64,000 nt of DNA from Deltaproteobacteria bacterium (GTDB taxonomy: Bacteria; Myxococcota_A; Polyangia; Polyangiales; JADJMO01): assembly GCA_025363655.1 (NCBI GenBank), contig JANYDK010000032.1, forward strand, positions 1-64,000. Reading direction: 5' to 3'. Positions 37,273 through 46,972 of this stretch are shown piece after piece. A program made the translations under genes and the position numbers. The notes under the pieces were generated by a model. That model saw nothing but the letters and a program-made list of their open reading frames with translations, was not told the origin of the DNA and made no database searches. Each line of letters begins with the position of its first letter. Position 1 is the stretch's first letter.

Positions 37273-37953
37273 TTGAAAGCTCATTCGTCGGGTACCCGAG
37301 CGCTTCTGGGCGTGATGGGGTTGGTGGTCGCGATTGCCGCGCTGATCGTCCTTCTGCGCGACCAGCGACCTGAGTCGCAAGGAGGGAACGACGCAGCCGT
37401 TGAGCCGACGGCGAGCGGGACTTCGACTCTGCCTCCAGCAGAGGCTGCCATCGTCGTCCCGAGCGGGGGAGACGCCACTCCCGATCCACTGCAAGACGCC
37501 ATGCCCCCGAAACCCGTGGCGACGGTGTCCGGTTGCCAAGAGGGCACGCAGCTCGTGGCCGGCACGACCAAGGGCCTCGAGAAAGAATCAGGGTGTGCGC
37601 ACACCGTCGATGGTGGGTTGGTGAAGGAAGGGCACTGGATCTTCGTCGACCCGCGGGGCGGCGAGACCTCGGGCGAGTTCGTCGCCGGCAAGAAAGAAGG
37701 CAAGTGGACGACCTGGGACCCCAACGGCACCGTCGTCAAATCCGAAGAGTTCCACCTCGACAACAACGACGGCCAACAGATCGAGTGGAGCCCGAAGGGC
37801 GTTCGCCTCGCTGAACGAGAATTCAAAGGAGGTCGCCTCGACGGACGCGTGACGCTTTACCTCGAGGACGGCACCATCGTTCGCGAAATCTGGAAGGGCG
37901 GTCGGCGTATCGACCCCCCGGAGCCCAGTCCCTGGCCCGTCGACGCGTCCTGA
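37273..37953 (+). CDS. Membrane-anchored MORN/YwqK-like protein, unit A
   Basis: 226 residues. TTG start with GGAG six bases upstream; the in-frame codon two triplets earlier is a stop. One N-terminal membrane segment (~10-28: LLGVMGLVVAIAALIVLL), a Pro/Ala linker, a Cys pair (C87, C107), then four MORN-like strands: KEGHWIFVDP, EFVAGKKEGKWTTWDPNG, QIEWSPKGVRLAEREF and GGRLDGRVTLYLEDGTIVREIW. Annotation tools may call such proteins YwqK-family antitoxins, but no toxin is present. Its paralogue at 42633 occupies the same position before the second MopE-type gene, so the pair likely works with, or helps present, the giant protein. Confidence 0.8.
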   Translation: MKAHSSGTRALLGVMGLVVAIAALIVLLRDQRPESQGGNDAAVEPTASGTSTLPPAEAAIVVPSGGDATPDPLQDAMPPKPVATVSGCQEGTQLVAGTTKGLEKESGCAHTVDGGLVKEGHWIFVDPRGGETSGEFVAGKKEGKWTTWDPNGTVVKSEEFHLDNNDGQQIEWSPKGVRLAEREFKGGRLDGRVTLYLEDGTIVREIWKGGRRIDPPEPSPWPVDAS

Positions 37954-38043
37954 CTTCCCATTCGGAGTGGCCAATCGACCAGCTCTCGTGTCACAATCCG
38001 GCTCTATTCTTTGCGCTGGGTAGACCCAGGTTTCCGAGGGGGA

Positions 38044-46400: not shown

Positions 46401-46972
46401 TCACCTGCGGCGTCGGAGCCTGCAAGAAAACGGTGCCCTCGTGCTCGACGGGCGTGCCGCAGTCCTGCGCTCCGGGCGCGCCGACTTCGGAGTCGTGCAA
46501 CGGCATCGACGACGACTGCAACGGCAAGGTCGATGACGGGACCGACCTGTGTGGGCCGAGCAAGACCTGCTTCTCGGGCGTCTGCACCGGCGGTGACGCG
46601 GGCGTCGTCGACTCGGGCAGCGACTCGGCCGCCGACGCGGCGACCGACTCCGCGATCGACAGCGGCGCCGTCGTCGACACGGGCACGGTGGCCGACAGCG
46701 GCACCGTCGTCGACAGCGGCGTCGTCGTCACCGACGCCGGCAAGGACGCGAGCGCCGACGCCGGCAAGAAGGACGCGGGCGGTGACGCCAGCGTCGGCGA
46801 TGCCAGCAGCGGTGACGGCGGAGACGGCGGCGCCGACGGTCAGCCGAACGAGAACGGCGACTGCGCGTGCCGCACGACGGGCTCGCGTGGACGCACCGAG
46901 GGCCTCGCGCTCGTCGGCATCGCGGTGGCGATCGGCATCCTCCGCCGTCGTCGCAACCGCCGCGCGGCTTGA
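43406..46972 (+). CDS. Giant Cys-rich CxxCH/MopE-repeat protein with MYXO-CTERM tail, unit B
   Basis: 1188 residues; ATG at 43406 with GGAG nine bases before it. Signal peptide to ~27. The mature N-terminus has CTGCHGL (CxxCH) in a ~180-residue beta domain (VTITASPATGTVGGSVTFS). Then Cys/Gly/Ser repeats with CGGSCTNC units, two ~125-residue disulfide repeats (CVDGVCCN, CQACDVGGS, VPSG.PH), ten MopE-type units at 45218-46540, a Thr/Asp/Gly linker, and a tail GDCACRT plus hydrophobic segment plus RRRRNRRAA. The MopE array and tail match unit A closely while the N-terminal beta domain differs more, so the copies have diverged mainly at their exposed heads. Surface location is inferred from the MYXO-CTERM tail. 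Confidence 0.88.
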   Translation: MKKSVALAARALLGFVVLVLARAADASSTGMYFDDGSAASPSTPACTGCHGLGGTQPTVTITASPATGTVGGSVTFSIHVTTSNTTSGFTPGAGFNIAEKTGNPAAGTFAGHCANGGCSPRVSGDVQTGVGIMGSNTQATHMKPLYGAGSVTFTVTWAIPGTPGTYNFQAMGNAVDGNGSNGPPDRFDFGNLAYTVNCGGGSNNCSGVCVANSASSCGGSCTNCNSGAPANTSPTCSGGSCSYPCNGSSHNCSGTCYLNSDSNHCGGSCTNCVATAPSGGSGSCSGGSCVYSCPGGQHQCGGSCVSNLADSSCGASCVACAAGTNCNSGTLTCLKANGQGCGADAQCFNGHCVDGVCCNSTCTSQCQACDVGGSVGACSNVPSGAPHGSRGACAGSGVCQGSCGGTPVCTFPGAATSCRLASCAGNIQTLAAGCDGAGSCPLNTSGCGLYVCGASACKTTCAGDPDCNGGFCTSPTCNGKLPNGSPCTGASQCTSNQCVDGVCCNVACAGQCQACDVGGSLGTCTNVPSGQPHAARGACVGSGAAPCGGACNSSSAACVYPTSASCYTGAGGTSGVGPCHNGTLTCTTGVAGACTGQVTPVAESCNLVDDDCNGTVDNGFLLATCGVGACARTGTTCQASSCTAGVATAETCNGIDDDCNTVVDNGIPLSTCGVGECANTGATCQPVTCTPKPATGEVCDAKDNNCNGINDDGIPLATCGVGVCARTGTTCFPGSCVPGAPVFESCNGKDDDCNGLTDDTLAPSTCGTGACANIGTTCDPTTCTPKASKAEICNGIDDDCNGSVDDGLAIPKCGKGVCQRSATTCDIATCVPGTPSGEVCNGLDDDCDGVVDNGVPLAKCGIGACAATGTSCAAASCVPAKATPEVCNGLDDDCNGVADDVPGSVTCGVGACKKAGAACGTGVCTPGTPSPETCNALDDDCNGSVDDGIPLAKCGLGACAATGTTCALSTCVPGIPSTEICNGTDDDCNGLVDDGLLDITCGVGACKKTVPSCSTGVPQSCAPGAPTSESCNGIDDDCNGKVDDGTDLCGPSKTCFSGVCTGGDAGVVDSGSDSAADAATDSAIDSGAVVDTGTVADSGTVVDSGVVVTDAGKDASADAGKKDAGGDASVGDASSGDGGDGGADGQPNENGDCACRTTGSRGRTEGLALVGIAVAIGILRRRRNRRAA
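45218..46540 (+). repeat. Ten MopE-type repeats, unit B
   Basis: Ten units collinear with those at 40858-42180: the third has DNN for DDD, the seventh ends DDV, and the seventh spacer (VPGSVTCGVGACKKAGAACG) is identical in both arrays. Confidence 0.9.

What the first reader, a model, noticed from the sequence alone, without database searches (positions are those of the whole stretch)
37273..46972. Tandemly duplicated two-gene surface module (membrane MORN protein + giant CxxCH/MopE/MYXO-CTERM protein)
Two units sit head to tail on one strand with the same gene order: a ~225-residue membrane-anchored MORN/YwqK-like protein, then a 1.2-1.5k-residue secreted protein with an N-terminal CxxCH domain, disulfide repeats, ten MopE-type repeats and a MYXO-CTERM-type tail. 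The strict pairing suggests the small membrane protein is a dedicated partner (export, maturation or anchoring) of the giant protein. MopE-like acidic Cys repeats bind metal in the one studied case, so metal capture at the cell surface is a reasonable guess. I know of no description of this paired unit.
Basis: partly seen in the sequence, partly recalled or inferred. Interest (0 to 1): 0.75.

Follow-up and report, generated by a model that had tools for sequence, protein, structure and literature searches.

The report
Membrane MORN partner of surface stalk
A myxobacterium carries, twice in tandem, a small membrane protein gene followed directly by the gene for a giant cysteine-rich cell-surface protein, and because the same rare two-gene pairing also occurs in distantly related genera it is probably a real working partnership, although nobody has tested what it does.

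Summary
Four + strand ORFs (37273-46972) form two head-to-tail units: a membrane-anchored MORN protein, then a 1.2-1.5k-residue surface protein. The giant's N-terminal CxxCH part belongs to, or is related to, the NCBIfam choice-of-anchor V (CAV) domain. Disulfide repeats, about ten MopE-type repeats and a MYXO-CTERM tail over its curated cut-off follow. The pairing is conserved outside this genome: G105 and G106 (one genus) and G130 (another genus), all of another family in the same order, have the same gene order on one strand. It is rare: of 102 distinct CAV genes in the class, 5 have the MORN gene directly upstream (two here, three elsewhere). The five paired MORN proteins cluster in a tree; the five CAV domains do not. 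The repeat type of the giant varies between pairs, so MORN more likely serves the CAV part or its export than the repeats. Copper capture is not supported: the MopE tract has no His or Trp but nine DxDxNGxxD calcium-type loops per protein. Best reading: an inner-membrane, periplasmic MORN adaptor dedicated to folding or export of its MYXO-CTERM client. That function is inferred, not shown. New variant of a known kind; interest about 0.45.

The parts
37273..37953 (+). MORN protein 1: uncleaved-looking TM helix, Pro/Ala-rich linker, MORN beta-sheet domain with a Cys pair
   Evidence: ORF; AlphaFold2 helix 15-30, mostly low-confidence linker, beta-hairpins 104-213 with mean pLDDT 87-97 over residues 111-210; Foldseek hits MORN1, SET7/9, junctophilin, MORN4
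37534..37911 (+). MORN sheet domain of protein 1, including the conserved C...GC pair
38044..42609 (+). Giant protein 1 (ORF opens at 38011; signal peptide from 38044)
38197..38694 (+). CxxCH N-terminal domain of giant 1, related to choice-of-anchor V but below its cut-off
   Evidence: NF041895 29.3 bits (cut-off 42); A9 profile hit
38695..40851 (+). Disulfide-rich repeats of giant 1
   Evidence: sequence; 180 Cys in the whole protein
40858..42181 (+). About ten MopE-type repeats, nine with strict DxDxNGxxD loops, no His or Trp
   Evidence: PF11617; pattern count
42490..42594 (+). MYXO-CTERM sorting tail of giant 1
   Evidence: TIGR03901 25.6 bits, cut-off 20
42633..43310 (+). MORN protein 2, same architecture
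   Evidence: ORF; 35-37% identical to protein 1
43406..46972 (+). Giant protein 2 (ORF opens at 43322; signal peptide from 43406)
43469..43999 (+). CxxCH choice-of-anchor V domain of giant 2
   Evidence: NF041895 63 bits, cut-off 42; Ig/Reeler/cohesin-like sandwich
44000..45211 (+). Disulfide-rich repeats of giant 2
   Evidence: sequence
45212..46541 (+). About ten MopE-type repeats of giant 2
   Evidence: PF11617 92.8 bits, 10 stretches
46856..46954 (+). MYXO-CTERM sorting tail of giant 2
   Evidence: TIGR03901 26.1 bits, cut-off 20

Best explanation
The unit encodes a surface stalk protein and its dedicated inner-membrane partner. The giant is exported by Sec, held in the inner membrane by its MYXO-CTERM helix, processed by the genome's own myxosortase (MrtC) and moved to the cell surface by type II secretion, as worked out or modelled for MYXO-CTERM proteins in Myxococcus. 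There it would display an N-terminal CAV (CxxCH, Ig/Reeler-like) domain on a rigid, disulfide- and probably calcium-stabilised stalk. The MORN protein sits in the inner membrane by one TM helix; a flexible Pro-rich linker carries its MORN sheet into the periplasm. It most likely binds the client, probably the CAV domain, during folding or maturation before release to the secretion system. The tandem duplication gives two client-partner pairs. Shown by sequence or profile: domain content, sorting tail, presence of the sorting machinery genes, conserved pairing. Inferred: topology, binding, timing and function.
For: Pair conserved in G105, G106 and G130. Only 5 of 102 CAV genes in the class have MORN upstream, and all of those MORN proteins share TM + linker + Cys pair. 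The paired MORN proteins cluster in the tree (2 changes, 0 of 500 shuffles as low). The shared part of all partners is the N-terminal CxxCH (CX3CH in G130) domain, whereas the repeats differ (MopE in the window and G130, disintegrin-like in G105/G106). MYXO-CTERM tails over cut-off in four giants. Own genome holds MrtC (248 bits, cut-off 195), two GspD over cut-off and cytochrome c assembly proteins. MYXO-CTERM sorting by myxosortase and the T2SS model: PMC11980579. MORN repeats act as protein-protein modules: PMC7725318. In the window copies the MORN and CAV parts diverged to the same degree (36% and 39% identity) while the stalk stayed more alike.
Against: No interaction, expression or localisation data. 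The sister CAV protein of the same genome (C40) and 97 of 102 CAV genes of the class do without a MORN neighbour, so it is not required for CAV biogenesis in general. Only three genera carry the pair, and two of the genomes are congeners. The CAV domains of the pairs do not form a clade. G130's giant runs off the contig, so its tail is unseen. The MORN tree is poorly resolved (36% of bootstrap trees have the group as one).
Confidence: 0.42

Rival explanations
1. The two genes are simply co-transcribed surface/envelope genes: MORN works in the envelope on its own, and the conserved order reflects shared regulation or descent of one gene block, without direct contact.
For: Short gaps and one strand. 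MORN proteins are widespread alone. No promoter or terminator evidence separates or joins the genes.
Against: The rest of the neighbourhood is not kept between G105, G106 and the window, only the pair is; the paired MORN proteins form a cluster.
Confidence: 0.27
2. MORN is a working part of the finished machine: it stays as a periplasmic or inner-membrane dock or signal relay for the surface protein, as TraB is the partner of the Cys-rich MYXO-CTERM receptor TraA.
For: TraA has the same plan: N-terminal ligand domain, Cys-rich stalk, MYXO-CTERM, and an operon partner needed for function (PMC3325183).
Against: MORN has one inner-membrane helix and no OmpA-like or outer-membrane part; a surface lipoprotein would be out of its direct reach (inference).
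Confidence: 0.2
3. Metal capture: the MopE repeats bind copper at the surface and MORN supports the process.
For: PF11617 is named after the copper protein MopE.
Against: MopE's copper site is two His plus kynurenine from Trp (PMC3423442); the MopE tract of both giants has no His or Trp. The repeats carry DxDxNGxxD loops, a calcium-type pattern, and calcium stabilises MopE itself. The G105/G106 giants show no MopE hit.
Confidence: 0.06
4. MORN is a YwqK-like immunity protein and the giant a toxin carrier.
For: ywqJ-ywqK is a putative toxin-antitoxin pair of the Bacillus LXG systems (PMC8321402).
Against: No toxin domain in either giant; the MORN gene lies upstream and its product is membrane-anchored.
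Confidence: 0.04

Closest known systems
MYXO-CTERM surface proteins sorted by myxosortase (TIGR03901; MrtX/MrtC)
   Same: Signal peptide, C-terminal Cys motif + TM + Arg tail over cut-off; the genome has MrtC and type II secretion genes
   Different: A dedicated MORN gene upstream is not described in the papers searched
Choice-of-anchor V / MXAN_6652-type MYXO-CTERM proteins (NF041895, NF041894)
   Same: CxxCH N-terminal domain, in many members followed by MopE motifs and a MYXO-CTERM tail
   Different: Those genes have no MORN gene upstream and are mostly short; here the stalk is greatly enlarged and paired with MORN
TraA-TraB of Myxococcus
   Same: N-terminal domain + Cys-rich stalk + MYXO-CTERM protein encoded beside a partner gene
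   Different: The N-terminal domain is not PA14, the Cys repeats are not recognised as TIGR04201, and the partner is MORN, not OmpA-like
MopE of Methylococcus capsulatus
   Same: PF11617 motifs
   Different: No His/Trp copper site in the repeat tract; no MORN or CAV domain known there (own knowledge)
MORN_2 / YwqK-like proteins
   Same: MORN beta-sheet, CPxGT...C signature shared with many Myxococcota MORN proteins
   Different: TM anchor and long linker; only a weak Pfam match; paired with a CAV gene

Membership tests
MYXO-CTERM (TIGR03901) | Tail over the curated cut-off of 20 bits | tested here: met
   25.6 and 26.1 bits in the window, 24.7 and 26.6 in G105/G106
MYXO-CTERM (TIGR03901) | Cleavage by myxosortase and display at the cell surface | not testable with these tools
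   Only the presence of MrtC and GspD genes could be shown
Choice-of-anchor V (NF041895) | Profile score over the cut-off of 42 bits | tested here: inconclusive
   Giant 2: 63 bits (met); G130 partner: 67.6 bits (met); giant 1: 29.3 bits, E 7.7e-7 (not met); G105 partner: no direct hit; the A5 profile, which includes these, matches CAV at 98.8% probability
Cu-binding_MopE (PF11617) | Repeat motif over the cut-off of 27 bits | tested here: met
   113.7 and 92.8 bits
MopE copper protein | Copper site of two His and a Trp-derived kynurenine | tested here: not met
   The repeat tract has no His or Trp; the whole giants have 12 His and 3-6 Trp elsewhere
MORN_2 (PF07661) | Score over the Pfam cut-off of 29.6 bits | tested here: not met
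   24.7 and 13.7 bits
MORN fold | Row of MORN beta-hairpins | tested here: met
   AlphaFold2 mean pLDDT 87-97 over residues 111-210; Foldseek E down to 1e-6 against MORN structures; profile hits SET7/9 and MORN1
TraA | PA14 domain and TIGR04201 Cys repeats | tested here: not met
   No such hit in Pfam or NCBIfam
c-type cytochrome domain | CxxCH with covalently bound heme | tested here: inconclusive
   CxxCH nearly universal (CX3CH in G130) and a later His nearly so in 19 CAV domains; heme itself not testable

The most novel reading that the evidence does not exclude
The CAV domain is an undescribed c-type heme domain: a CxxCH motif just before an Ig-like sandwich with a second nearly invariant His, comparable in plan with cytochrome f. 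These giants would then carry a heme at the tip of a long surface stalk, for contact electron transfer or sensing, and the MORN protein would be a dedicated maturation factor for it.
Probability: 0.15. Interest if true: 0.8.

Novelty: new variant of a known kind. Interest (0 to 1): 0.45.

Why it matters
Partner proteins of MYXO-CTERM surface proteins are hardly known beyond TraB. A rare but conserved MORN partner makes a testable case of client-specific help in the myxosortase/T2SS route. It also draws attention to the CxxCH choice-of-anchor V domain, matched in 90 of 318 genomes of the class and named without a function, which may bind heme.

Tried and rejected
Single-protein search with MORN 1 in 57 relatives gave only the window copies and two weak hits; profiles were needed. 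The genome-contig scan gave one true relative, MAG KLAP97, evidently the same contig as G106 by its length, and two unrelated hits. Plasmids: no match. Promoter and terminator scans: no more than chance. PDB sequence search with the CAV profile: only weak matches, several of them cytochromes matching around CxxCH. The structure hits of the CAV model are a broad set of beta-sandwiches (cohesin, integrin, Reeler; one b6f chain of 279 residues) with Z about 8-9, no clear winner. Other giants of the own genome: mostly lipobox-type N termini, no MORN neighbour seen. Toxin-antitoxin and copper readings rejected as above. A CAV tree of 101 rows lost some paired rows and was replaced by a smaller one.

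Full report
What is there. On the + strand, 37273-46972 holds two head-to-tail units of the same two genes. Gene A is a ~225-residue protein: one N-terminal hydrophobic helix, a Pro/Ala-rich linker and a C-terminal MORN domain. Gene B is a giant secreted protein: signal peptide, CxxCH domain, disulfide repeats, about ten MopE motifs, an Asp-rich spacer and a MYXO-CTERM tail. The unit is bounded by a minus-strand alpha-amylase gene upstream and a convergent histidine kinase downstream. Gaps from A to the likely start of B are about 90 nt, and from B1 to A2 23 nt. Consensus promoter and terminator scans say nothing either way.

Age of the duplication. MORN 1 and 2 are 36% identical and the two CAV domains 39%, with 60-70% of fourfold sites different, near saturation. 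The C-terminal ~960 residues are 67% identical with 45% of fourfold sites different, down to 29-36% in several windows, some of them in the MopE tract. So the duplication is old; the stalk was either constrained or partly homogenised, while each MORN and CAV part diverged to a like degree.

The CxxCH domain. Trimmed to the domain, giant 2 scores 63 bits against NCBIfam choice-of-anchor V (cut-off 42), giant 1 29.3 bits. A profile of the five first-found domains matches CAV domains of unpaired proteins of the class at 98.8% probability. Many of those carry MopE motifs and MYXO-CTERM-like tails too, so the domain plan of the giants is a known recurring one, here much enlarged. AlphaFold2 gives a beta-sandwich (mean pLDDT 70.6, pTM 0.72) resembling cohesin, integrin and Reeler domains.

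The MORN protein. AlphaFold2 on four sequences gives a helix at 15-30, a low-confidence linker over roughly 30-75, and a MORN sheet of high confidence (mean pLDDT 87-97 over residues 111-210). Foldseek hits are MORN1, SET7/9, junctophilin, MORN4/Myo3a. MORN repeats are protein-protein modules rather than membrane binders in the study of MORN1 (PMC7725318).

Conservation of the pair. With a profile from the two window proteins only, the best hits in the 184 genomes of the order included G106, G105 and G130. Inspection showed that each lies directly upstream, same strand, of a gene with the same kind of N-terminal domain: G105 MORN L062:9022-9747, giant 4902-8963; G106 (evidently MAG KLAP97) L061:9247-9984 and 5285-9187; G130 L142:3825-4733 and 4745-5869, cut by the contig end. 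G105 and G106 share a genus; G130 is another genus; both are in another family of the window's order. The other genes around the pair differ. The G105/G106 giants have disintegrin-like and other Cys repeats in place of MopE motifs, and MYXO-CTERM tails over cut-off.

How rare. A CAV profile over all 318 genomes of the class hit 90 genomes. After fetching and de-duplicating, 102 distinct CAV genes were examined, 97 with at least 900 nt upstream visible; exactly five have a MORN gene directly upstream. The four other genomes of the window's family have no MORN hit. The MORN family at large is common in the phylum and usually unlinked to such giants. In a tree of 60 MORN domains the five paired ones need 2 changes against 4.9 in shuffles, none of 500 as low, though only 36% of bootstrap trees hold them as one group. 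The paired CAV domains do not group. This points to one MORN subfamily that goes with certain CAV giants. One caution: the MORN profiles used for the later searches were built from the paired proteins, so their high scores there are by construction; the unbiased ranking is that.

Mechanism. MYXO-CTERM proteins are anchored in the inner membrane, cleaved by myxosortase and moved to the surface, in the current model by type II secretion (PMC11980579). The window's genome has myxosortase MrtC and two GspD genes over cut-off. A single-TM MORN protein would face the same periplasmic space while the client is still in the inner membrane. Since only the N-terminal domain and, where seen, the sorting tail are common to all partners, the most economical reading is an adaptor for folding, maturation or hand-over of the client. 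This is inference.

Metal. The copper site of MopE needs two His and a Trp-derived kynurenine (PMC3423442). The MopE tracts here have none of these residues; each giant has nine DxDxNGxxD loops, the calcium pattern of dockerin and thrombospondin type 3 repeats (own knowledge). I read the tract as a calcium-stabilised stalk.

Heme. CxxCH is near-invariant and a later His nearly so across 19 CAV domains (CX3CH in G130), and the genome has cytochrome c assembly proteins. A heme domain is possible and untested.

Verdict.

Noticed in passing
32849-37214 (- strand): Two adjacent alpha-amylase (GH13) genes in tandem, directly beside the duplicated unit; two independent-looking tandem duplications side by side.
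   Followed up: partly
G000:C40, L025:7111-9192: A third CAV protein of the same genome (CxxCH, Cys repeats, MYXO-CTERM over cut-off) without MopE motifs and without a MORN neighbour.
   Followed up: yes
L142:4955-5434 and loci: The choice-of-anchor V domain has a near-invariant CxxCH (CX3CH in G130) and a near-invariant later His in all lineages looked at; possible c-type heme domain.
   Followed up: partly
G000, contigs C24, C31, C56, C71, C93, C109, C123, C125: The genome holds many other giant Cys-rich proteins (about 1,000-2,300 aa), mostly with lipobox-like N termini and Arg-rich C-terminal tails.
   Followed up: partly
L270:1303-2103: Myxosortase MrtC gene of the window's genome, over its curated cut-off.
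   Followed up: yes
L223:2513-3957: In G132 two CAV-domain genes lie in tandem head to tail, with a third in the same 11.5 kb.
   Followed up: no
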